Assembly: GCF_014650435.1 (NCBI RefSeq)
Contig: NZ_BMUY01000004.1
Coordinates: 434,001-498,000 of the forward strand
Direction of reading: 5' to 3'
DNA length: 64,000 nt
Source of the DNA: Streptomyces tendae
GTDB taxonomy: Bacteria; Actinomycetota; Actinomycetes; Streptomycetales; Streptomycetaceae
The translations under genes and the position numbers were made by a program. Position 1 is the first letter of the stretch, and every line of letters begins with the position of its first letter. This document shows positions 51,587 through 62,560 of the stretch, one piece after another. The notes under the pieces are model-generated. The model was not told the origin of the DNA, did not search any database, and saw only the letters and a program-made list of their open reading frames with translations.

Positions 51587-51615
51587 CCAATCCGCAGGCC
51601 GCGCGGCTCCGGATT
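51587..51615 (+). promoter_or_regulatory. SigK-type promoter of sigK
   Basis: CCAATCC (51587-51593) - 15 bases - CCGGATT (51609-51615), 48 bases before the sigK GTG. Mycobacterial SigK (ECF19) recognises about CCATCC and CCGAAT; the match here plus an identical copy before the fasciclin gene supports SigK autoregulation. Confidence 0.7.
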
Positions 51616-51662
51616 ACGCGGGGACATCCCCCGCCCGTCGCACATCCTTTGGAGCACCCGTC

Positions 51663-52247
51663 GTGAAGGAAGCCGTACACATCGGCAGAAATCCATCGTC
51701 CCAACCAGATCTGCAACAGCTGATCCGGGAGGTGGCCCTGGGCGATCAGGACTCCTTCGCCGCCGTGTACGACGCGGTGGCCGGGTCCGTGCTCGGGGTC
51801 GCCCGGGCGGTGCTGCGCGACCAGGCGCAGTCGGAGGAGGTCGCGCAGGAGGTGCTGGTGGAGGTGTGGCGCACGGCGCCCCGCTACCGGCCGGAGCGCG
51901 GCACGGTCGTCAACTGGATCCTGACCCTGGCCCACCGGCGGGCCGTGGACAGGGTGCGGTCGGTGGAGGCCGCCGCGGCCCGTGACCACAAGGCCGCGCT
52001 GCTCGAGAGGACGCCGGAGTACGACGAGGTGACCGAGCAGGTCGAGACCCGGCTGGAGCGGGAGCAGGTGCGGCGCTGCCTGCGCACCCTGACCGAGATC
52101 CAGCGCCAGTCCGTGACCCTCGCCTACTACCGCGGGCTGACCTACCGGCAGGTGGCCGAGGCACTGGCGGTGCCGCTGGGCACGGTCAAGACGCGGCTGC
52201 GTGACGGTCTCATCCGGCTCCGCGACTGCCTGGGGGTGAGCGCGTGA
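51663..52247 (+). CDS. sigK: ECF sigma factor SigK-like (ECF19)
   Basis: 194 residues from a GTG at 51663 (TTGGAG upstream). Region 2: DQDSFAAVYDAVAGSVLGVARAVLRDQAQSEEVAQEVLVEVWRTAPRYRPERGTVVNWILTLAHRRAVDRVR; region 4: LTEIQRQSVTLAYYRGLTYRQVAEALAVPLGTVKTRLRDGLIRLRDCL. It is followed by an RskA-type anti-sigma factor (4-base overlap), the standard SigK/RskA arrangement, and by DUF1295 and CFA genes, as in Mycobacterium. A SigK-type promoter precedes it. The paired RskA zinc-binding factor probably responds to redox or membrane stress. Confidence 0.88.
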   Translation: MKEAVHIGRNPSSQPDLQQLIREVALGDQDSFAAVYDAVAGSVLGVARAVLRDQAQSEEVAQEVLVEVWRTAPRYRPERGTVVNWILTLAHRRAVDRVRSVEAAAARDHKAALLERTPEYDEVTEQVETRLEREQVRRCLRTLTEIQRQSVTLAYYRGLTYRQVAEALAVPLGTVKTRLRDGLIRLRDCLGVSA

Positions 52248-52999
52248 TGCGCACCGAGGACCTGCACAGCCTGACGGGCGCCTACGCCCTGCACGCGCTG
52301 CCCGACGACGAGCGGGACGCCTTCGAACGCCATCTGGCGCACTGCGCCGCCTGCGAGCAGGAGACCCAGGAGTTCGCCGCCGCGACGGCCCGGCTGGGGC
52401 TGGCCGCAACCGTCGTCCCCGGTCCCGCGCTCAGGGACCGGGTGCTGCACCGCGTCGCCACGGTGCGCCAGGTTCCGCCGGGCGGAGGCACGGCGGCGAA
52501 GGCCCGCCGTGCCGTGCCCCGGGGGCGCGGCCTGGCCCGGTGGGCGCTGGCGGCCTGCGTGGCAGCCGCGGCGGGGCTCGGCGGTACGGCGGTGTGGCAG
52601 TACGAGCGGGCCCAGGACGCCGGGCAGCGGGCCGCGCAGGCCGAGCGACGGGCCGAGACCCTCGCCGGGGTGCTGGCCGCGCCGGACGCCGAGTCCCGTA
52701 CGGCACGACTGGCCGACGGGGCGAGCGGGACGCTGGTCGTCTCGCAGAGGCAGGACCGGGCGGTGTTCCTGGCCTCGGGCATGGCCGAGCCGCCGAGCGG
52801 CAAGGTGTACCAGCTCTGGTTCGACGACCACGGCACGATGCGCTCGGCGGGCCTGATGGATCCCGGCAGCACCAGTCAGGCGGTGCTGATGGACGGCGCC
52901 GTCGACGGGGCGGCGGGTGTGGGCATCACGGTCGAGCCGGCCGGCGGGTCGAAGCAGCCGACCTCCGACCCGATCGCGCTGCTGAGCATGCCGGCCTGA
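52244..52999 (+). CDS. rskA: RskA-type anti-sigma factor
   Basis: 251 residues (GTG at 52244; ATG at 52247 also possible). Anti-sigma zinc finger (HLAHCAACEQE, HxxxCxxC) in the first 40 residues binds SigK, one transmembrane helix (WALAACVAAAAGLGGTAVW, about 99-117), then an extracytoplasmic RskA-C domain (VFLASGMAEPPSGKVYQLWFDDHGTMRSAGL). Controlled by regulated proteolysis in Mycobacterium. Overlaps sigK by four bases; a strong terminator follows. Confidence 0.92.
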   Translation: MMRTEDLHSLTGAYALHALPDDERDAFERHLAHCAACEQETQEFAAATARLGLAATVVPGPALRDRVLHRVATVRQVPPGGGTAAKARRAVPRGRGLARWALAACVAAAAGLGGTAVWQYERAQDAGQRAAQAERRAETLAGVLAAPDAESRTARLADGASGTLVVSQRQDRAVFLASGMAEPPSGKVYQLWFDDHGTMRSAGLMDPGSTSQAVLMDGAVDGAAGVGITVEPAGGSKQPTSDPIALLSMPA

Positions 53000-53001
53000 C
53001 G

Positions 53002-53027
53002 GGGGTGAGGGCCGCCGCCCTCACCCC
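53002..53027. terminator. Bidirectional terminator rskA / DUF1295 gene
   Basis: GGGGTGAGGGC and GCCCTCACCCC, perfect 11-base stem with CGCC loop between convergent genes. Confidence 0.85.
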
Positions 53028-53049
53028 TTCCCTTCCCCCGCGTCGAGTC

Positions 53050-53865
53050 CTACGGGGACCGACGCGGCGGACGCGGGAAGAAGCCGCTGGTGCGCGCCGC
53101 GTACTCGGCCCAGCCCGGCCGGTCCGCCATGTGCCGCTCGAGGAGTCGCTTCCCGCTGCCGCCGATCAGCAGGTACGTCATCACCAGCGGGGAGACGACG
53201 GACACGGCGGCGGCGTCGAGGCCCGCGTCGCAGGCGACCAGGAACAGGCCCCACCAGACGCAGAAGTCACCGAAGTAGTTGGGGTGCCGGGTCCAGCTCC
53301 ACAGTCCGCGGTCCATGATGCGCCCCCGGTTGCCCGGGTCGGCCTTGAACCGGGCCAACTGGGCGTCCCCCACGGCCTCGAAGGCCAGCCCCACCACCCA
53401 TACGACCACTCCGGCCCAGGCCGGGACCGACAGCGGCCCCGGCCCGTACGCGGCGGCCTGCACCGGCAGCGCCACCAGCCACACCAGGGCGCCCTGGAGC
53501 AGGTAGACCATGCGCAGGGCGTAGAGGTTCCGGTTGCCGCGGGCCTTGGCGAGCATCGCGTCGTAGCGCGGGTCCTCGCCGTGGCCCCGGCCGCGCCGGG
53601 CGATGTGCGCGGCCAGCCGCAGACCCCATACGACGGTCAGGGCCGCCACCAGCGTCCGGCGTCCCGGGTCGCCCTGCCCGGCCGCCGCCGCGACCGCACA
53701 GGTCACGACGGCGACGGCGGCGAAGCCGAGGCCCCAGGCCACGTCCACCACCCGGTGCACGCCCTTGCGCACGGCGACGGCGAAGGTGACCGGCATGACG
53801 GCGAGCGCGGCCGCCGCGGCCCAGCCGAGACCGATGGCGAACGCGCCCCACGGAAAGCCGTTCAC
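53050..53865 (-). CDS. DUF1295 membrane protein (steroid 5-alpha-reductase-like)
   Basis: 271 residues from a GTG at 53865 that overlaps the stop of the CFA remnant (GTGA). About seven hydrophobic helices and the conserved C-terminal block NRGRIMDRGLWSWTRHPNYFGDFCVWWGLFLVACD and LLERHMADRPGWAEYAARTSGFFPRPP, typical of DUF1295. In mycobacteria the orthologue (Rv0446c) lies between sigK and the CFA synthase ufaA1, suggesting a role in lipid modification. Probably still expressed, although its upstream operon is damaged. Confidence 0.88.
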   Translation of the reverse strand: MNGFPWGAFAIGLGWAAAAALAVMPVTFAVAVRKGVHRVVDVAWGLGFAAVAVVTCAVAAAAGQGDPGRRTLVAALTVVWGLRLAAHIARRGRGHGEDPRYDAMLAKARGNRNLYALRMVYLLQGALVWLVALPVQAAAYGPGPLSVPAWAGVVVWVVGLAFEAVGDAQLARFKADPGNRGRIMDRGLWSWTRHPNYFGDFCVWWGLFLVACDAGLDAAAVSVVSPLVMTYLLIGGSGKRLLERHMADRPGWAEYAARTSGFFPRPPRRSP

Positions 53866-54083
53866 GGGCGCTCCAGCCGCTCGTACCACTCCCCCGGCGT
53901 GGCGGGCATGCCGCTGACGCCCTCGGCGGTGGGCCTCACGCCCAGGATCTGGTCGACGCCCATGCGACGCTGCTCGAAGGCGAGCGCGCCGCCCACCAGG
54001 TAGAGCCGCCACACCCGGGCGGTCTCCTCGCCGACCAGCGCGACGAACTCGTCCCAGCGGTCCTCGAGGGTGTGCTCCCACGC
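53862..54083 (-). pseudogene. C-terminal remnant of a cyclopropane-fatty-acid synthase-like methyltransferase
   Basis: Only about 74 codons remain, ending four bases into the DUF1295 gene: AWEHTLEDRWDEFVALVGEE, TARVWRLYLVGGALAFEQRR and MGVDQILGVRP are the unmistakable C-terminus of CFA/UfaA1-type SAM methyltransferases. The whole SAM-binding domain (about 350 residues) is missing, and the frame continues upstream into unrelated sequence without a start. In other actinobacteria the full gene, a DUF1365 gene and an FAD oxidoreductase gene are next to sigK; those are also absent here. The end point at 54081-54086 coincides with the hydrolase remnant, marking a deletion junction. Confidence 0.85.
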
Positions 54084-54613
54084 GGAACGGCGCCGCCGAG
54101 GACCCCCTGCGGGATGCCCGGCGGGCCCTCGCCGAGTTGCACGGCCTCGTCGGTGACGTACCGGTGGTGCTGCTCGGCCACTCCATGGGCGGCCGGGCGG
54201 CCCTGCGCGCGGCGGAGGCCGACGGGGTACGCGGTGCGGTGGCGCTGGCGCCCTGGTGCCCGCCGGGTGAGCCCGTCGGCCGGCTCCGGGACCGGGTGCT
54301 TCTCGTGCTGCACGGCAGCCGGGACCGCGTCACCGATCCCGGCGAGTCGGCCGCGTACGTCTCGCGCGCCCGTGCTGCCGGGGCCCGGGCGGGCATGCTG
54401 CTGCTGGAGAACGGCGACCACGCCATGCTCCGCCACCACGCCCGCTGGCACCGCACCGCGACCGCGGCGGTGGCCCACCTGCTCGCACCGGAAGCGGCGC
54501 CCTGCGAGCTGTTCGCCCGGGCCTTCGCGGCGGAGGGGCCAACGGTGCTGCGCCCGGCGCCGCCCGCCTCGTCCGAGGCGCCACTCGGGCCGGTGCGGGA
54601 GCCCGGCTGTTAG
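54084..54613 (+). pseudogene. C-terminal remnant of an alpha/beta hydrolase
   Basis: The frame opens abruptly with NGAAEDPLRDARRALAELHG and continues VPVVLLGHSMGGRAALRAAE with the nucleophile Ser, VLLVLHGSRDRVTDPGES with the acid and LLLENGDHAMLRHH with the His. The N-terminal strands (about 80 residues, normally before the R-G-W-N segment) are missing. A TTG at 54137 could start a shortened protein but would lack the oxyanion-hole loop. It ends just before the ABC-F leader. Together with the CFA remnant it defines a deletion that removed both divergent 5' ends. Confidence 0.8.
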
Positions 54614-54654
54614 TCTGGTGGAGACGTTGATCGTGCAGCGAGGGAGTCGCGGAC

Positions 54655-54691
54655 ATGGTGGGTGACGACGACATCTCCGGGTGAGACCCGG
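54655..54691 (+). promoter_or_regulatory. Leader uORF and hairpin upstream of the ABC-F gene
   Basis: A nine-codon ORF, MVGDDDISG (54655-54684), with AGGGAG nine bases upstream, ends inside a hairpin CCGGGT-GAG-ACCCGG (54677-54691). A second possible hairpin (GGCG..CGCC near 54710) and a pyrimidine-rich tract follow before the ABC-F ATG at 54818. Ribosome stalling on such uORFs induces antibiotic-responsive ABC-F genes in other actinomycetes. Confidence 0.6.
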
Positions 54692-54817
54692 TTCAGGTAG
54701 GCCGCAGCGGGCGTTTTCGAGCGCCGTCGCAGTGGCCGTCGCGTCGTTCCCTTTTCCCTGTGTTCCCTCCCGGGCAGAGGTCTCTTTCCTGCCCCTCACC
54801 GCCACGAGGTCGTCTCC

Positions 54818-56452
54818 ATGTCCGACGCCGTCCTGCGCTGCTCCAACCTGTCCTTCTCCTGGCCCGACGACACCCCCGTCTTCCAGGACCTGTCGTTCAC
54901 CGTGGGCGTGGGCCGTACCGGCCTGGTGGCTCCCAACGGTGCCGGGAAGTCCACCCTGCTCAAGCTGATCGCCGGTGAGCTGCGGCCCACCGGCGGCTCC
55001 GTCACGGTCTCCGGCGTCCTCGGCCACCTGCCGCAGACCCTCCCACTGACCGGCGGCCTCACCGTGGCCGAGGTCCTCGGTGTGGACGCCGTGATCCGGG
55101 CCATCGACGCCGTGGAGTCCGGTGACGTGGCCGACGAGCACTTCGCCACCATCGGTGACGACTGGGACGTCGAGGAGCGCACCCGCGCCCAGCTCGACCG
55201 CCTGGGCCTGGACGACCTCGCCCTGGACCGACGGCTGAGCACGCTCAGCGGTGGCCAGATCGTCTCCCTCGGACTCGCCGCGCAACTGCTGAAGCGACCC
55301 GACGTGCTCCTCCTCGACGAGCCCACCAACAACCTCGACGTGGAGGCCCGCGACAGGCTCCAGGACGTGCTGATGGACTACAACGGCTGCCTGCTGCTGG
55401 TCAGCCACGACCGCGAACTGCTCGACCGCATGGAGCGCATCGCCGAACTCGACAGCGGCGAACTGCGCCTTTACGGCGGCAACTTCACCGCCTACGAGGA
55501 AGCCGTCCGGGCCGAGCAGGAGGTCGCCGAGAAGAACGTCCGCAACGCCGAGCAGGAGCTGAAGCGGGAGAAGCGGGAGCTGCAGCAGGCCCGCGAGCGT
55601 GCCGACCGCCGGGCGAGCAACGCGGCCCGCAACCTCAAGAACGCCGGGCTGCCCCGGATCTTCGCGGGCAACATGAAGCGCGGGGCGCAGGAGTCCGCGG
55701 GGCGGGCGGGCCAGACCCACGCCAACCGGGTCGGTGAGGCGAAGGCACGGCTGGACGAGGCGGAGCGGTCGCTGCGCGAGGAGCAGCGCATCACGCTGGA
55801 CCTGCCGGAGACCCGGGTGCCCGCCGGACGCACCCTCTTCCTCGGTGAGCGGCTGCGGATCCGGCTCGGCGACAGGGACGTCTTCGGGGACCGGGGCGTC
55901 GACCTGACGGTCCGCGGCCCCGAGCGGATCGCGCTGACCGGGGCCAACGGCACGGGCAAGAGCACGCTCCTGCGCCTGGTCGACGGCGACCTGGATCCGC
56001 AGGACGGCGACATCAGGCGCGCCGACGGGCGGGTCGCCTACCTCTCCCAGCGGCTGGACCTGCTGGACGAGGGGCGCACCGTCGCCGAGAACTTCGCCGC
56101 CTGGGCCCCGCACCGGCCGGAGTCCGAGCGGATGAACCTCCTGGCCCGCTTCCTCTTCCGGGGCGCCCGCGCCCACCTGCCCGTCGGCCTGCTCTCCGGC
56201 GGCGAGCGGCTGCGGGCCACGCTGGCCTGCGTGCTGTGCGCGGAACCGGCGCCGCACCTGCTGCTCCTGGACGAGCCGACGAACAACCTCGACCTGGTCG
56301 GCGTGGGCCAGTTGGAGAGCGCCCTGCACTCCTACCGGGGTGCGTTCGTGGTCGTCAGCCACGACCGGCGGTTCCTGCGCGAGATCGGCGTCGAGCGCTG
56401 GCTGCGGCTGGCCGACGGGGAGCTGACGGAGACGGGGGCGCCCGAGGAGTAG
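54818..56452 (+). CDS. ABC-F family ATPase (ribosome-protection type)
   Basis: 544 residues. Two ABC domains without membrane helices: first Walker A APNGAGKST, LSGGQ, DEPTNNLD; second GANGTGKST, LSGGER, DEPTNNLD. The interdomain linker (about 225-330) is long, charged and helical (EEAVRAEQEVAEKNVRNAEQ onwards), as in ribosome-binding ABC-F proteins that displace antibiotics. Regulation by the upstream uORF/attenuator leader supports an antibiotic-responsive role. Which drug class it acts on is unknown. Confidence 0.92.
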   Translation: MSDAVLRCSNLSFSWPDDTPVFQDLSFTVGVGRTGLVAPNGAGKSTLLKLIAGELRPTGGSVTVSGVLGHLPQTLPLTGGLTVAEVLGVDAVIRAIDAVESGDVADEHFATIGDDWDVEERTRAQLDRLGLDDLALDRRLSTLSGGQIVSLGLAAQLLKRPDVLLLDEPTNNLDVEARDRLQDVLMDYNGCLLLVSHDRELLDRMERIAELDSGELRLYGGNFTAYEEAVRAEQEVAEKNVRNAEQELKREKRELQQARERADRRASNAARNLKNAGLPRIFAGNMKRGAQESAGRAGQTHANRVGEAKARLDEAERSLREEQRITLDLPETRVPAGRTLFLGERLRIRLGDRDVFGDRGVDLTVRGPERIALTGANGTGKSTLLRLVDGDLDPQDGDIRRADGRVAYLSQRLDLLDEGRTVAENFAAWAPHRPESERMNLLARFLFRGARAHLPVGLLSGGERLRATLACVLCAEPAPHLLLLDEPTNNLDLVGVGQLESALHSYRGAFVVVSHDRRFLREIGVERWLRLADGELTETGAPEE

Positions 56453-56529
56453 GCCGCCGACGGGGCGGGCTTCCCGGGTGGCGTGGTGTCCGTTTGCGGT
56501 CGGCGGGTGCCGGGCGGCAGGCTGCCCGT

Positions 56530-56985
56530 GTGGCCACTTTGCTGATCGTGCATCACACGCCGTCGCCGAACTGCCAAGCGATGCTGGAGTCCGTCGTCTC
56601 CGGGGCGACCGCGCCCGAGATCGAAGGGGTGCGGGTCGTCCGGCGGGCGGCGCTGGCGGCCACGGCCGTCGACGTACTGGAGGCCGACGGGTACCTGCTG
56701 GGCACCCCCGCCAACCTGGGGTACATGTCCGGTGCGCTCAAGCACTTCTTCGACCAGGTCTACTACCCGTGCCTGGACGAGACGCGCGGCCGCCCCTTCG
56801 GTTACTACGTGCACGGGGGCAACGACACCACGGGCGCGGTACGCGCCATCGAGTCGGTCACGACCGGGCTCGGCTGGCAGCGTGCGGCGCCCGCGGTGAA
56901 CGTGACCGGTGAGCCCGGCAAGGCAGATCTGGCGTCCTGCTGGGAGCTGGGGGCGACGCTCGCCGCCGGTCTGATGGACGACTGA
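56530..56985 (+). CDS. Flavodoxin-like FMN-dependent oxidoreductase
   Basis: 151 residues from a GTG at 56530. ATLLIVHHTPSPNCQAMLESV is the flavin phosphate loop; DGYLLGTPANLGYMSGALKHFFDQVYYPC the second; FGYYVHGGNDTTGAVRAIESV the third. Small NADPH-dependent FMN reductase/WrbA-like family, shorter than the gene at 12607. Role unknown; it lies between ABC-F and the cobalamin transporter. Confidence 0.82.
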   Translation: MATLLIVHHTPSPNCQAMLESVVSGATAPEIEGVRVVRRAALAATAVDVLEADGYLLGTPANLGYMSGALKHFFDQVYYPCLDETRGRPFGYYVHGGNDTTGAVRAIESVTTGLGWQRAAPAVNVTGEPGKADLASCWELGATLAAGLMDD

Positions 56986-57019
56986 GCACGCACCGGCGGC
57001 CGCTGGGGCGGGCGGGTTC

Positions 57020-57789
<770 letters not shown>

Positions 57790-57793
<4 letters not shown>

Positions 57794-58866
57794 CGTGCCC
57801 TCCGGGTGCGGTACAGCACGAGCACGAAGGCCGGTACCCCGATCAGCGAGGTCACCACGCCCACCGGGACCTCCTGGGGTGCGAGGACGGTACGGGCCAG
57901 GGTGTCGACCCACACCAGGAACACGGCGCCGGCGAGTGCGCAGACCGGCAGCAGCCGGGCGTGGCCGGGGCCGGTGAGTGCCCGCACGGCGTGCGGCAGC
58001 ACCAGCCCGACGAAGCCGATCGCGCCGGCCGAGGCGACCAGGGCGGCGGTGAGCAGGGCGGTGGCGCACAGCAGCACCAGCCGGGTACGGGCCACCCGGA
58101 CGCCGAGCGCGGCCGCCGCGTCCTGGCCGAAGGCGAAGGCGTCCAGCGTCCTGGCGTGAGCGAGGCACACGGCCAGGACCAGCACCAGGACGGCCGTGCC
58201 GGTCCGTACGTCGCCCCAGCCCGCGCCGCCGAGCGAGCCGAGCAGCCAGAACAGCACGCCGCGGGTGGTCTCGGCGTCGGCGGCGGTCATGACCACGAAC
58301 GAGGTGAGCGCGGAGAACAGCTGCATCGCCGCCACGCCCGCGAGCACCACCCGGTCCGTGGTGCCGCCGAGGCTGTGGCTGAGCAGCATCACCAGCGCGA
58401 ACGAGCAGACCGCGCCGATGAACGCCCCGCCGGGGACGGACAGCGCACCGCCGCCCACGCCGAGCACGACGACCAAGACGGCGCCGGTCGATGCGCCGGA
58501 GGAGACGCCGAGGACGAAGGGGTCGGCGAGTGGGTTGCGCAGCAGTGACTGCAGGACGGCCCCGCACACGGCGAGTCCGGCACCGCACACCGCCGCGAGC
58601 AGGGTGCGGGGCAGGCGCAGGTCCCAGACGATGCCGTCACGGATCGGCGAGACGCCCTCGGCGCCGGTGCCGACACCGAGGTGGGCGGCTATCACGGACC
58701 ACACGTCGGCGACGCCGATGTCCGCCGGGCCGATCGTCACGGCGACGGCCACGGAGGCGCACAGGGCGACGATTCCGGCCGCCGCCCACACGAGGGGGGC
58801 GCGGCGGGACGCCCGTATGCCGGAGACGGACGCCTGGGCCGCGGCCGTCCGGCTCGCGGACGTCAC
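57790..58866 (-). CDS. btuC: Cobalamin ABC transporter permease BtuC (FecCD family)
   Basis: 358 residues, GTG overlapping the binding-protein stop (GTGA). Ten helices; IVWDLRLPRTLLAAVCGAGLAVCGAVLQSLLRNPLADPFVLGVSSGAS and GAIGFVGLVLPHAVRALTGPGHARLLPVCALAGA are the FecCD signatures with the coupling region. Imports corrinoids with BtuF and BtuD. Confidence 0.95.
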
Positions 58867-59966
58867 TTGGCGAGCCCGAACTCGCGCAGCGCCGCCGCCA
58901 CCTGTTCCACGCCCTCGACGGTACGGATGGTGGGGTTCATGGCCTGCCCGCTGAGCAGCACGTAGCGCTTCTTCCGGACGGCGGTCATGTTCCTGGTCAC
59001 GGGATTGGACTCCAGGAACTCGATCTTCTTCGCCGCCGTCTCGGCCGTCTGCGACTTGCGGGTGAGGTCGCCGAGGACCAGGACGTCGGGGTTCCGGTCG
59101 GCGACGGTCTCCCAGCCGACCTGCGGCCATTCCTCGTGGGTGTCGTCCATGGCGTTCTCGGCGCCGACCGCGCGGGTGATGACGCCGGGGGCGCCGCAGC
59201 AGCCCGCCAGGTAGGGCGAGGTGGAGTTGGCGAACCAGTACATGAGGGTGACGCCGGAGGCGTCGAGGCCGGACGTCGCCCTGTCGACCCTGGACTCGAG
59301 GTCGGCGACGAGCTTCTCGCCGCGCTGCTCGACGTCGAAGAGGCGGGCCAGGTCGCGGACTTCGCCGTAGACGGTGTCCATGGTGAAGGGCTCGCTGCGG
59401 ACGCCGTCGCCGTCGCCGCTGTTGTCCTTGCCCGCGCAGTCGGAGGGGGACAGGTAGGCCGGCACACCGAGTTCCGTGAACCGTTCGCGGGTGGCCACGC
59501 CGCCGGTGCCGAGCGTGGAGGCGAAGGAGGCGGCGACGAAGTCGGGTTCGGCGTCCAGCACCGTCTCGAAGGACGGCATGTCGTCGGCGAGGCGGGGGAC
59601 CGCGGAGTTCGCCTTCTCCAGTCCCTTCATGACCGGGTCGGTCCAGGTGGCGGTGCCCGCCATGCGGTCGGCGAGGCCGAGCGAGAGCAGGATCTCCGTG
59701 GTGCCCTGGTTGAGGGAGACGGCCCGGCGCGGCGGCGCGGTGACCCGGACGTCGTGCCCGCAGTCCCGGACCGTGCGTGGGTAACCGGCCGCACCGGCCG
59801 GCGCTGCCGCGTCGTCGGTGGCCGCCCCGGACCCGCAACCGGAGGCCAGCAGGGCGCCGGACAGGAGCAGGACGGGACCGCGCAGGGCGCGGCGGGAAAG
59901 GAAGGGGCGTCGGGGGCCGACCGGACCTGCTGCGGACAAGGGGATCCTCTGGCGTCGAGGGCTCAT
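58863..59966 (-). CDS. btuF: Cobalamin-binding lipoprotein BtuF
   Basis: 367 residues from the ATG at 59966. An Arg-rich signal peptide with lipobox LLASGC (Cys44). Periplasmic-binding class III fold (HDVRVTAPPRRAVSLNQGTTEILLSLGLADRMAGTATW; DVLVLGDLTRKSQ). First gene after the riboswitch, so co-controlled with btuC and btuD. The C-terminal VLLSGQAMNPTIRTVEGVEQVAAAL closes the second lobe. Confidence 0.93.
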   Translation of the reverse strand: MSPRRQRIPLSAAGPVGPRRPFLSRRALRGPVLLLSGALLASGCGSGAATDDAAAPAGAAGYPRTVRDCGHDVRVTAPPRRAVSLNQGTTEILLSLGLADRMAGTATWTDPVMKGLEKANSAVPRLADDMPSFETVLDAEPDFVAASFASTLGTGGVATRERFTELGVPAYLSPSDCAGKDNSGDGDGVRSEPFTMDTVYGEVRDLARLFDVEQRGEKLVADLESRVDRATSGLDASGVTLMYWFANSTSPYLAGCCGAPGVITRAVGAENAMDDTHEEWPQVGWETVADRNPDVLVLGDLTRKSQTAETAAKKIEFLESNPVTRNMTAVRKKRYVLLSGQAMNPTIRTVEGVEQVAAALREFGLAK

Positions 59967-60011
59967 GCGCGAAGCCCGTCCGTACGATGCGGCCCGCGCC
60001 GCACGCGGCAC

Positions 60012-60165
60012 GGGTGCCAGCAGGTCTTCGGACTCGGGTTCGACCGGACGGAACGCCTTCCCGGACGTCTTACGCCGCCCAGTGGCCGTGTTCCGCCCGT
60101 CCCCCTCACCGCTGCGCGTCAGTTCCGGATTCGCACCGGATTCCCTGACCCACCAGGTGGGTTCG
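60012..60165 (-). ncRNA. Cobalamin (B12) riboswitch
   Basis: On the minus strand, in order: GGGAATCCGGTGCGAATCCGG (60125-60145, the 5' core), CTGACGC, then GCCACTG near 60078 and GGGAAGGCG, and the B12 box GAGTCCGAAGACCTGCTGGC (60016-60035). The expression platform contains GCCGC-GT-GCGGC between the box and the btuF start, which could hide the ribosome binding site. Spacing of all elements matches known Streptomyces cobalamin riboswitches. Confidence 0.93.
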
Positions 60166-60169
60166 ACTG

Positions 60170-60181
60170 GCTTGCGCAAGC
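60170..60181. promoter_or_regulatory. Palindrome upstream of the riboswitch
   Basis: GCTTGCGCAAGC, perfect 12-base palindrome just before the riboswitch 5' end; may be part of the promoter or an operator for the btu operon. Confidence 0.35.
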
Positions 60182-60265
60182 TACCACAGGGCCACCGCCC
60201 CGCCGGGGGGCGGGCCGCCACCGCCCCGCTCCCCCGGCCCTCGGGCCGCCACTTCCACTCGCGCC

Positions 60266-60925
60266 TCAGCTCTTCGGCATGAGGACGGTGTCGATGATGT
60301 AGACGTTGGCGTTGGCGGTCTTCACGTTGCCGCAGACGACCTTGGCGGAGTCGTTGACCTCGTAGGACTCGTCCGAGCCCGAAGTGGTCAGCTTCGACTT
60401 CTGCAGCGTGTCGAAGGAGCCGTTCTCCAGGTCCTTGGGCGCGAGCTTCTGGCCCACGACGTGGTAGGTCAGGATGTCGGTGAGCATCGCCTTGTCGGCC
60501 AGGACCTTGTCCAGGTCGGCCTTCGGGATCTTGGCGAAGGCGTCGTTGGTCGGCGCGAAGACAGTAATGTTCTCGGCGTTGTTGAGCGTGTCGACCAGAC
60601 CGGCCTTCTTCACCGCCGACACCAGCGTGGACAGGGCCGGGTTGTTCGAGGCGGCCGTGGCGACGGGGTCCTTGGCCATGCCGTCGAACGAACCGGCGCC
60701 CTCCTTCGGCACCGTGGAGCAGGCCGGGCCGAACGGCTCGTCGGAGCCCGCCATGCCGCCGGAACTGTCGGCCGACTGGTCGTCGGTCGCCGCGGGCGCC
60801 GAGGAGGCGGCCTGCGCGGAGTCCGAGGAGCCGCTGTCGCCGTCGTCGGAACAGGCGGCCAGGGACAGGGGCAGGACGGCGGCCGCGACGACGGCGACGA
60901 CGGAGCGGCGGATACGGGCGTTCAT
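60266..60925 (-). CDS. Fasciclin (FAS1) domain lipoprotein, MPT83-like
   Basis: 219 residues. Signal peptide with lipobox LAAC (Cys25), a Ser/Asp/Ala-rich linker, then one FAS1 domain (about 65-219): FGPACSTVPKEGAGSFDGM, NNPALSTLVSAVKKAGLVDTLNNAENITVFAPTNDAFAKIP, ILTYHVVGQ, NANVYIIDTVLMP. Mycobacterial MPT83/MPT70, with the same architecture, belong to the SigK regulon. A SigK-type promoter lies 208 bases upstream (about 200-base leader). Adhesion or signalling at the cell surface is likely. Confidence 0.92.
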   Translation of the reverse strand: MNARIRRSVVAVVAAAVLPLSLAACSDDGDSGSSDSAQAASSAPAATDDQSADSSGGMAGSDEPFGPACSTVPKEGAGSFDGMAKDPVATAASNNPALSTLVSAVKKAGLVDTLNNAENITVFAPTNDAFAKIPKADLDKVLADKAMLTDILTYHVVGQKLAPKDLENGSFDTLQKSKLTTSGSDESYEVNDSAKVVCGNVKTANANVYIIDTVLMPKS

Positions 60926-61132
60926 GGAGAATCTCCCTGAAAACGGGCAGCACGAAGGCTGCGTCGGTACGGAGTCGTGGTGCGCGTGATGCGCGATGGT
61001 CGTGCTGGGTCGATGTGCTGTGCGGCGGTCCGCCGAGTACCCGGCGCCGTCGCGTGGCGGCCGGCCGACCCGGGTCCGGAGTCAGCCGCCGGTTCGCGCT
61101 CGGCGTGGTCTCGGTTCTTCCCTCACACGGGG

Positions 61133-61161
61133 AATCCGGAGCCGCCCCGGCCCCGGATTGG
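61133..61161 (-). promoter_or_regulatory. SigK-type promoter of the FAS1 lipoprotein
   Basis: On the minus strand CCAATCC (61161-61155) - 15 bases - CCGGATT (61139-61133). The same two hexamer-plus elements and spacer length as the promoter before sigK, and both spacers end GCGGCT. Identical architecture at two such loci is unlikely by chance. Confidence 0.7.
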
Positions 61162-61188
61162 TGACTCAGCCGATCGGGTGAGGGAGTC

Positions 61189-62121
61189 TCACAGCGGCGT
61201 CGCGGTCCGGAGGATGAGGAACATCGTCACGGCGGCGTTCGCGGACGACATCGCCGAGACGGCGGTCCCCGCCGCCGCGGCCCACGCGGCCAGGCCCACC
61301 GAGGTGAACACCGGGGGCCAGGTGCGGACCACCGGGGCGGGGCCGAGCAGGGCGGCCACCCGGCGCGGCACCGGACCGGGCGCCGCGAGTCCGGCGAGGG
61401 TGGCGACGGGAGTACCGCGGGAGACCAGGGCCGCCTTGCCGATCGCCGTCGCGACCGTCCGCCGGTCACCGACGGTGCGGGCGGCGGTCTCGTCCGCCCA
61501 CCGCTCCGCCGTGTAGGCGACGGCGGTCCTCAGCGGCCGCAGGAACGGGTTGGCCAGCGCGGCGAGGCGTACGGCGAGCAGGAAGCGGTGGTGCCCGGCG
61601 GCGAGGTGGGCGCGCTCATGGGCGAACAGGGCGCGCCGCTCACCCGGTTCGAGGCAGTCCAGCAGGGCCGTACTCACCACCACGCGGTCCCGGCGACCAC
61701 CGGGCAGCGCGTACGCGTAGGGCACGTCGTCCGGCAGTACGGCCACCCCGGTGCCGGGCAGCCCGGCCAGTGCCCGGTGGGCGCGGCGGCGCACCCTGCC
61801 GTGCCGCCACAGGGCCCGCGCCGAGGCCGCGACCACCGCGCAGAGCGCGGGGATGGCCGCCTTGCCGACCACCTCGTCGTAGGGCACCGCCGCCCGGACC
61901 TCGGGGTCCGACCAGCCGTCGGGGAGCGGGTTGCCCGGCAGTTGGGCGGTGCCGACCACCATCACCAGGGCCAGGCACACGGTGCTGCACAGGGCCATCA
62001 CGGCGGCGACGGCGGTGAGCAGCCTGGTCGCGGTCCGCGGGTGCAGGTGCTGCTCTGCGAGCCGGGCGATCGGCCAGGCCGTCAGGGGCAGGACCAGGGG
62101 CAGGAAGACGAAGACCCCCAT
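61189..62121 (-). CDS. M56-family (BlaR1-like) membrane metallopeptidase
   Basis: 310 residues. Four to five transmembrane segments around a cytoplasmic zinc protease domain: HERAH in [13 protein letters not shown] and the third ligand Glu in [12 protein letters not shown]. Unlike BlaR1 it lacks a penicillin-binding sensor domain. It follows a BlaI repressor by 6 bases (one operon), as in the widespread BlaI/M56 pairs that answer unknown signals. Confidence 0.92.
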
Positions 62122-62127
62122 GCGGTG

Positions 62128-62514
62128 TCAGCCGTCCTCCGCGGCGCGCGCGTGCCCGAGCAGTTCGCGCAGCAGCCGCTCGTCGTCGGGGTCGAGGCCG
62201 GTGACGAAGCTGGCCAGGACCGCTTCCCGGTCGCTCTCGGCGTCCAGCACCTTGCGCATCTTGCGCGCGGCCAGGCCCGCCTGGTCCGAGGCCGGCGTCC
62301 AGGCGAAGGACCGGCCCGCACGCTCACGGCTGACGGCGCCCTTCTCGAGGAGCCGGGTCAGGATCGTGATCACCGTGGTGTAGGCGAGGTCGCCGCCGAG
62401 GCGCTCCTGCACCCAGCCGGCCGTCGCGGGGCCGTCCGCCTCGCGCAGCGCGGACAGCACCAGCGCCTCCAGCTCGCCCTGGCCCCGCCGCCGCGGACGC
62501 CGGTCATCCGTCAC
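62128..62514 (-). CDS. BlaI/MecI-family repressor
   Basis: 128 residues from the GTG at 62514 chosen because GGAAGGAGG lies upstream; an ATG at 62556 is also open. Winged helix [57 protein letters not shown]. It should bind the TACA-N4-TGTA operator upstream and be inactivated when the M56 protease cleaves it. Confidence 0.92.
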
Positions 62515-62560
62515 GGCCCGCCTCCTTCCGCCGCCGATCGTCTTCCGGTGCGCCATCGTA

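What the first reader, a model, noticed from the sequence alone, without database searches (positions are those of the whole stretch)
51587..61161. A SigK regulon: identical promoters for sigK and an MPT83-like FAS1 lipoprotein 10 kb apart
CCAATCC-N15-CCGGATT occurs before sigK (51587-51615) and, on the opposite strand, before the fasciclin lipoprotein (61161-61133). Spacers have the same length and end in GCGGCT. In M. tuberculosis SigK controls mpt70/mpt83 (FAS1 lipoproteins) and recognises a similar motif (CCATCC / CCGAAT). This suggests a conserved SigK-RskA-FAS1 circuit in Streptomyces.
Basis: partly seen in the sequence, partly recalled or inferred. Interest (0 to 1): 0.68.

Follow-up and report, generated by a model that had tools for sequence, protein, structure and literature searches.

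The report
Streptomyces SigK regulon with fasciclin lipoprotein
Two matching switch sequences put a stress regulator (SigK) and a surface fasciclin lipoprotein under one control circuit, a set-up known from tuberculosis bacteria; its other conserved partner genes point to light or lipid-oxidation stress as the still unknown trigger.

Summary
CCAATCC-N15-CCGGAT lies exactly before sigK (51587-51614 +) and FAS1 (61134-61161 -), its only two exact copies in the 8.9 Mb genome. With the first -10 base freed there is one more, just before a molybdopterin oxidoreductase (MoOR) gene 25 kb left of the window. In 80 Streptomyces sigK loci a site precedes 76 of 80 sigK genes, 43 of 44 MoOR genes, and 49 of 51 FAS1 genes alone or with MoOR. 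So it is very probably a conserved SigK regulon with a self-controlled sigK-rskA.

The SigK-RskA-MPT83 cassette with SigK sites was already described in Actinobacteria and Yersinia (PMC7509140): a new member of a known kind.

Two things go further. (1) In relatives the regulon also holds a FAD oxidase-DUF1365-CMAS-DUF1295 operon, families of furan-fatty-acid synthesis, which Rhodobacter's singlet-oxygen sigma factor controls together with a FAS1 protein. This strain lost that operon in a 4.8 kb deletion. (2) MoOR/FAS1 promoters, but not sigK's, carry an extra palindrome at fixed distance. Dependence on SigK and the signal are untested.

The parts
51587..51614 (+). SigK-type promoter of sigK-rskA (CCAATCC-N15-CCGGAT), probable self-activation
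   Evidence: exact; unique in genome with its twin; a site of at least 11 of 13 before 76 of 80 related sigK genes at -58 to -110
51663..52247 (+). sigK, ECF sigma factor; both redox cysteines (C139, C189) present
52244..52999 (+). rskA, anti-sigma factor overlapping the end of sigK
   Evidence: RskA_C 111 bits, RskA_N 33.7 bits, zf-HC2 28.4 bits, all over cut-off
53050..53871 (-). DUF1295 gene, last complete gene of the lost lipid operon
   Evidence: PF06966 242 bits; end of the FAD-DUF1365-CMAS-CMAS-DUF1295 operon in L004
53860..54084 (-). C-terminal stub of a cyclopropane-synthase (CMAS) gene cut by the deletion; left limit approximate
   Evidence: collinear with L003-L007 up to window 54085; CMAS identified in L004
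54084..54085 (.). junction of a deletion of about 4.8 kb relative to L004, L007 and L003
   Evidence: blastn: L004 12414 to 17204, L007 12423 to 17216, L003 12447 to 17256; L005, L006, L011 and L013 also keep a 4.8 to 5.3 kb stretch here
54086..54613 (+). 3' part of an alpha/beta-hydrolase gene whose start and upstream site were deleted
60266..60925 (-). FAS1 lipoprotein gene (MPT83/MPT70-like)
   Evidence: PF02469 118.5 bits; only Fasciclin match in the genome; 1nyo best bacterial chain
61134..61161 (-). SigK-type promoter of the FAS1 gene, leader of about 200 bases
   Evidence: exact; the boxes and about 28 bases after them nearly unchanged in L008-L011 (one mismatch in the L008 -35 box) while the rest of the leader varies
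61166..61181 (.). palindrome close to TCACCCGATCGGGTGA upstream of the FAS1 -35 box; candidate site of a second regulator
   Evidence: 1 mismatch; 47 of 100 shuffles of the window give a match at up to 3, so the conserved position in relatives is the evidence

Best explanation
This is a SigK-RskA regulon. RskA, anchored in the membrane, holds SigK. On an envelope signal RskA lets SigK go, and SigK with RNA polymerase starts transcription at CCAATCC-N15-nCGGAT sites. In this genome these are sigK-rskA itself (positive feedback), the FAS1 lipoprotein gene, and a MoOR gene 25 kb outside the window. In relatives the same site also drives a lipid operon (FAD oxidase, DUF1365, CMAS, DUF1295); this strain has lost that operon and its promoter. 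Shown here: the sites, their rarity, their conservation, the gene families, the deletion. Inferred: that SigK is the sigma factor that reads them, and RskA control (from published work on the M. tuberculosis and Yersinia pairs). Not known: the signal and the job of FAS1.
For: Sites. Site of at least 11 of 13 before 76 of 80 sigK genes (of 1600 shuffled upstream regions 18 reach that score). In the 80 loci 193 sites against 1 in the reversed control. By gene, pieces of one gene merged: sigK 76 of 80, MoOR 43 of 44, FAS1 behind MoOR 41 of 42, FAS1 alone 8 of 9, FAD oxidase 20 of 31 (the first automatic count gave MoOR 44 of 46 and FAD 16 of 33). Outside Streptomyces, 40 FAS1 neighbourhoods: MoOR in 23, sigK and rskA in 17, either in 26; 20 control stretches from 20 of the same genomes: none. 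In 12 of 40, sigK follows FAS1 within 1 kb on the same strand. The 40 hold 14 SigK-like sites in 700 kb, 13 of them within about 300 bases before a MoOR or FAS1 match (in L148 the MoOR match is only partial); controls 1 in 368 kb. L156, L244 and L245 have MoOR-FAS1-sigK-rskA-FAD-DUF1365-CMAS-CMAS-DUF1295 in one direction. Published: SigK orthologues recognise the mpt70 site, and sites are conserved among Actinobacteria (PMC7509140, passages).
Against: No expression or start-site data. A second SigK (60% identity, with an RskA-like reading frame next to it, by eye) has a similar region 4.2 and might read the same sites, though its own upstream region lacks one. 4 of 80 sigK genes have no good site. 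55 of 203 sites in the 80 loci were not assigned to a marked gene, many of them sites divergent from MoOR or the FAD gene. The relatives are not phylogenetically independent. 14 of 40 FAS1 neighbourhoods outside Streptomyces have neither sigK-rskA nor MoOR in the stretch fetched, mostly 18 kb, and only 11 of the 40 hold a SigK-like site by the strict patterns.
Confidence: 0.88

Rival explanations
1. The sites are real ECF promoters but are read mainly by the second SigK paralogue or by both sigma factors together.
For: SigK2 at C9:74173 is 60% identical, scores slightly higher than the window SigK on the NCBIfam SigK model (290.5 against 286.3 bits) and has a similar region 4.2.
Against: The site stands before sigK itself in 76 of 80 loci, the usual mark of self-regulation; the region just upstream of SigK2 has no such site (by eye; one search lists none there); in 12 of 40 FAS1 neighbourhoods outside the genus sigK follows FAS1 directly.
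Confidence: 0.08
2. Chance resemblance of two GC-rich sequences; no shared control.
For: Streptomyces promoters are GC-rich, and two-mismatch matches do occur by chance.
Against: Exact matches are unique genome-wide with a zero control and are conserved at orthologous places while the spacers vary.
Confidence: 0.02
3. FAS1 is under double control: SigK supplies the promoter recognition, and a second regulator acts at the conserved palindrome centred about 12 bases upstream of the -35 box, so FAS1 and sigK respond differently.
For: GATC at one fixed offset in 34 of 45 MoOR and 5 of 9 FAS1 sites, 2 of 16 FAD-oxidase sites, 0 of 78 sigK sites (the first count took only the first GATC of each region and was lower). 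The window FAS1 promoter has it at that offset.
Against: The MoOR promoter of this genome lacks it (read). The regulator is unknown, and MoOR promoters are related by descent. Seven places in the genome match at up to 3 mismatches, the backward control has one; six of the seven were not followed up.
Confidence: 0.45

Closest known systems
Mycobacterial SigK-RskA-MPT83/MPT70 regulon (PMC7509140: abstract, passages, introduction and one results section read; Veyrier 2008, the main comparative paper, is not held and was not read)
   Same: SigK and RskA families, both SigK cysteines, related promoter site, FAS1 lipoprotein target; the lipid operon of relatives has gene families I recall for Rv0449c-Rv0446c, and PMC7509140 says M. 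tuberculosis sigK is autoregulated through the Rv0449c promoter.
   Different: Here sigK has its own SigK-type site; FAS1 pairs with MoOR in most relatives; no dipZ seen beside the window FAS1; in this strain the lipid operon is deleted.
Yersinia mpt83-sigK-rskA minimal cassette (PMC7509140, passages)
   Same: FAS1, sigK and rskA, with a SigK site before FAS1.
   Different: In the window FAS1 is 9.5 kb away on the other strand with its own promoter.
Rhodobacter sphaeroides RpoE-ChrR singlet-oxygen regulon (PMC7074977, passages with Table 1; PMC7380195 and PMC6852236, passages)
   Same: FAS1 (RSP_1409), CMAS-type methylase, and the UfaD and DUF1365 (UfaO) families under one self-regulating ECF sigma factor.
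   Different: ChrR, not RskA, is the anti-sigma factor; the sigma factor is ECF11; the promoters were not compared. Perhaps works alike, not a member.

Membership tests
SigK (ECF18/19) sigma factor | SigK family model over cut-off | tested here: met
   NF007228 286.3 bits, cut-off 226
SigK (ECF18/19) sigma factor | two conserved cysteines (133 and 183 of M. tuberculosis) | tested here: met
   C139 and C189 align with cysteines of 4nqw
SigK (ECF18/19) sigma factor | adjacent RskA-type anti-sigma factor | tested here: met
   rskA overlaps the sigK stop by 4 bases; RskA_C and RskA_N over cut-off
SigK-RskA-MPT83 regulon | FAS1 lipoprotein with a SigK-type site | tested here: met
   lipobox by eye
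SigK-RskA-MPT83 regulon | transcription dependent on SigK and RskA | not testable with these tools
   needs mutants or in vitro transcription
mpt83-dipZ-mpt70 triad | dipZ between or beside FAS1 genes | tested here: not met
   the genes beside FAS1 are a periplasmic binding protein and an M48 peptidase; dipZ was not searched for in the whole genome
RpoE-ChrR (ECF11) singlet-oxygen system | ChrR anti-sigma factor | tested here: not met
   the anti-sigma factor is RskA; no ChrR or ECF11 best match in 30 DUF1365 neighbourhoods of actinobacteria
Furan fatty acid pathway (UfaM, UfaD, UfaO) | operon of CMAS methylase, FAD desaturase and DUF1365 | tested here: inconclusive
   families present in relatives but not compared with the Rhodobacter proteins themselves and chemistry unknown; DUF1365 is absent from this genome

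The most novel reading that the evidence does not exclude
The unknown signal of SigK-RskA, in Streptomyces and across actinobacteria, is photooxidative or singlet-oxygen (lipid-peroxide) damage to the envelope. The conserved regulon would be a defence module like that of Rhodobacter RpoE-ChrR: a lipid operon making furan or related methyl-branched fatty acids, a FAS1 surface protein that quenches or binds oxidised or pigment molecules, and an extracytoplasmic molybdenum enzyme, with two different anti-sigma factors put in charge of the same effector genes in different phyla.
Probability: 0.35. Interest if true: 0.78.

Novelty: new member of a known kind. Interest (0 to 1): 0.55.

Why it matters
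The signal that switches on SigK in tubercle bacilli, where MPT70 and MPT83 are antigens under its control, is stated to be unknown (PMC7509140, passages). A Streptomyces with the same circuit and a fuller set of conserved partner genes offers a harmless place to find it. The gene content gives one concrete, testable candidate: light-driven or lipid oxidation. By conserved sites the regulon also takes in a molybdopterin oxidoreductase. Whether Veyrier 2008 had already reported parts of this could not be checked, as that paper is not held.

Tried and rejected
Chance was tested with shuffles, backward patterns and reversed sequences. The backward and reversed controls change dinucleotide content, so I rest the case on genome-wide uniqueness and conserved position rather than on their exact numbers.

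One-mismatch sites in the genome as further regulon members: 22 looked at; 15 are in clearly coding sequence, L103 lies inside a long reading frame, and none was accepted; L090, L095, L110 and L111 stay open.

SigK of S. coelicolor in the literature (SCO6520) was considered and dropped: it is a SigB-type factor with the same name (PMC9205884, passages).

MoOR as an MsrP methionine-sulfoxide reductase: closest solved relatives are sulfite oxidases, and 1xdq only weakly; NCBIfam SorA, SoxC, SorT and MsrP models all score below cut-off. Its substrate is left open.

Literature: Streptomyces + fasciclin + ECF sigma and ECF19 + fasciclin each returned 0 papers. SigK + furan fatty acid returned 2; SigK + singlet oxygen 15, of which 10 were listed; among the listed ones only PMC7074977 is about bacterial sigma factors, judged by titles and abstract starts. 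Most subscription papers are not in that library.

Results against the photooxidative reading: in M. kansasii dipZ, which has a putative SigK site, was not light-induced, and mpk83/mpk70 rose only 6- and 3-fold. Published work says oxidation stabilises the SigK-RskA complex. 18 of 30 DUF1365 neighbourhoods outside Streptomyces have no sigK-like match in the stretch fetched. This strain has lost the lipid operon.

Full report
1. The observation. The window is part of contig 4 of an 8.89 Mb genome. In the whole genome the pattern with 14 to 16 spacer bases is found only at these two places, with no match for the backward control. Freeing the first base of the -10 box adds a single exact site, C4:408408-408435 (-), about 25 kb left of the window. 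By eye it stands immediately before the GTG start of a molybdopterin oxidoreductase (MoOR) gene, so near that its transcript would be leaderless or almost so (inference). That protein is 75% identical to the MoOR that pairs with FAS1 in L016, while the four other Oxidored_molyb proteins of the genome that I compared, of five, are 26 to 34% identical over shorter stretches.

2. The genes. SigK passes its NCBIfam model and its closest solved relative is M. tuberculosis SigK; the second is Rhodobacter sphaeroides RpoE, 2q1z (the species is recalled). Both cysteines of the redox switch are present. RskA follows directly. FAS1 is the only Fasciclin match of the genome, with a lipobox (by eye), and its best bacterial solved relative is MPT70. 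Weaker matches of the same search include astaxanthin-binding FAS1 proteins and the chain 1w7d. A second SigK paralogue lies on contig 9; it also passes the SigK model, and I see no such site upstream of it.

3. Conservation in Streptomyces. I took the 80 sigK loci that the search kept (444 candidates were confirmed, the best 80 returned; several genomes give two). A site scoring at least 11 of 13 lies 58 to 110 bases before sigK in 76 of 80, with a 15-base spacer in 75 and 16 in one; the four without are L048, L052, L057 and L077. Counting all sites in these loci gives 193 against 1 in reversed sequence. With genes marked by tblastn and pieces merged, sites precede 43 of 44 MoOR genes (miss: L036), 41 of 42 FAS1 genes that follow MoOR (miss: L036), 8 of 9 FAS1 genes alone (miss: L027), and 20 of 31 FAD-oxidase genes. 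Of the 11 FAD genes without one, 7 lie behind FAS1 in the same direction (L018, L045, L049, L061, L072, L073, L074) and 4 lie within about 2 kb of the end of the fetched stretch (L015, L016, L021, L058). With one more spacing allowed there are 203 sites, 55 of them not assigned to a marked gene. Between orthologues the boxes are fixed while spacers vary. In the five FAS1 promoters aligned, the boxes and about 28 bases after them are nearly unchanged while the rest of the leader varies in length (L008 has one mismatch in the -35 box).

4. The wider regulon. In close relatives such as L004, sigK-rskA faces an operon FAD oxidase - DUF1365 - CMAS - CMAS - DUF1295 with its own site. In others, such as L016, MoOR-FAS1 follows with its own site. 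All kinds of parts are together in L080, and in L018, L045, L072, L073 and L074, where MoOR-FAS1 precedes the FAD gene. In L023, L030, L031 and L032 a site divergent from MoOR points at an ECF-like sigma gene (Pfam for L023 and L030). The window strain is a reduced form. Compared with L003, L004 and L007 it lacks about 4.8 kb between the two halves that meet at 54084/54085 (the stretch is present in all seven relatives aligned there): most of the first CMAS gene, the second CMAS, DUF1365, the FAD oxidase, both divergent sites and the start of an alpha/beta-hydrolase gene. DUF1365 is absent from the whole genome.

5. Beyond Streptomyces. FAS1 occurs in 71 of 148 sampled genomes of the class, 64 of them outside the genus. 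I fetched the neighbourhood of one FAS1 gene in each of 40 of these 64, mostly the best-scoring ones (5 to 19 kb each, mostly 18): MoOR in 23, sigK and rskA in 17, one or the other in 26; 20 control stretches at arbitrary places in 20 of the same genomes had none. In 12 of the 40 sigK follows FAS1 within 1 kb on the same strand. They hold 7 CCAATCC-type and 7 CCATCC-type sites in 700 kb, in 11 of the 40 loci, against 0 and 1 in 368 kb of control; 13 of the 14 stand within about 300 bases before a MoOR or FAS1 match. DUF1365 occurs in 41 of 148 genomes; of 30 neighbourhoods fetched, all outside the genus, the FAD gene is in 28, CMAS in 27, DUF1295 in 18, sigK and rskA in 10, FAS1 in 5, MoOR in 4, and 18 have no sigK-like match; of these genes the 20 control stretches have none. 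L156, L244 and L245 have MoOR-FAS1-sigK-rskA-FAD-DUF1365-CMAS-CMAS-DUF1295 in one direction; L246 the same without a DUF1295 match. The circuit is not universal: exact sites are found in 18 of 61 sampled Streptomyces genomes, backward control in 2 of 61.

6. A lead on the signal. The authors of PMC7509140 say the signal of SigK is unknown. DUF1365 is the domain of UfaO, which with UfaM and UfaD makes methylated furan fatty acids in Rhodobacter sphaeroides (PMC7380195, passages). RSP_1090, RSP_1091, CfaS and a FAS1 gene, RSP_1409, are in the RpoE regulon that answers singlet oxygen (PMC7074977, passages with Table 1). The same paper reports that R. capsulatus RpoE is closer to SigK (34% identity) than to R. 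sphaeroides RpoE (24%) and is induced by photooxidative stress; its table also lists no R. capsulatus homologue of RSP_1090, RSP_1091 or RSP_1409. Of 98 plasmid records with a DUF1365 relative I opened five: in Aminobacter the FAD-DUF1365 pair lies beside an ECF sigma factor with ChrR, in Azospirillum thermophilum the same with one gene between, in Azospirillum B510 beside an ECF sigma factor with a cupin protein, in Salinivibrio downstream of MerR and photolyase genes, and in Tsukamurella upstream of sigK and an anti-sigma gene. In M. kansasii light raises mpk83 6-fold and mpk70 3-fold (PMC9861118, passages). Against it: dipZ between them did not respond, oxidation is reported to stabilise SigK-RskA, and 18 of the 30 DUF1365 neighbourhoods have no sigK-like match. 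I put this reading at 0.35.

7. A second element. The MoOR and FAS1 promoters, unlike the sigK promoter, carry a palindrome near TTCACCCGATCGGGTGAA with GATC at one fixed offset before the -35 box in 34 of 45 and 5 of 9 sites, against 2 of 16 FAD-oxidase and 0 of 78 sigK sites. The window FAS1 promoter has it; the MoOR promoter of this genome does not (read). The genome has seven places at up to three mismatches, one of them this one; the backward control has one. This suggests a second regulator; none is identified.

8. Verdict. As a circuit it is a new member of a described kind. Its value lies in the fuller regulon, the loss of one branch in this strain, and a testable candidate for the signal.

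Noticed in passing
window 60002-60186 (-), with 57020-59894 (-): A cobalamin riboswitch (Rfam RF00174, 94 bits) stands before a periplasmic binding protein and FecCD permease and an ABC ATPase (by eye) lying between sigK and FAS1, probably a cobalamin uptake operon.
   Followed up: partly
window 61189-62556 (-): An M48-type peptidase gene and a Penicillinase_R (BlaI-type) repressor gene lie directly upstream of the FAS1 promoter, a BlaR/BlaI-like pair.
   Followed up: no
own genome C9:74173-74715 (L084): A second SigK paralogue, 60% identical, with an RskA-like reading frame next to it (by eye); no CCAATCC-N15-nCGGAT seen upstream.
   Followed up: partly
L023, L030, L031, L032, divergent from MoOR: A SigK-type site points at another ECF-like sigma gene, so in some species SigK may start a cascade.
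   Followed up: partly
genome G059 (unnamed, same genus): 13 exact CCAATCC-N16-CGGAT sites, against 0 to 4 in the other 60 genomes: a possibly much larger SigK regulon, or another cause.
   Followed up: no
own genome, six places listed (C13:56388, C1:416813, C5:281107, C17:70678, C20:51755, C32:6324): Other matches to the TTCACCCGATCGGGTGAA palindrome at 2 or 3 mismatches, possible further targets of the unknown second regulator.
   Followed up: no
L189 (Salinivibrio plasmid): The FAD-DUF1365-CMAS operon lies downstream of MerR and photolyase genes, hinting at light control in a third group of bacteria.
   Followed up: no
L164 7855, 8726, 10534: Two FAS1 genes with a gene between them that I did not identify, and three SigK-like sites in front: the layout described for mpt83-dipZ-mpt70.
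   Followed up: no
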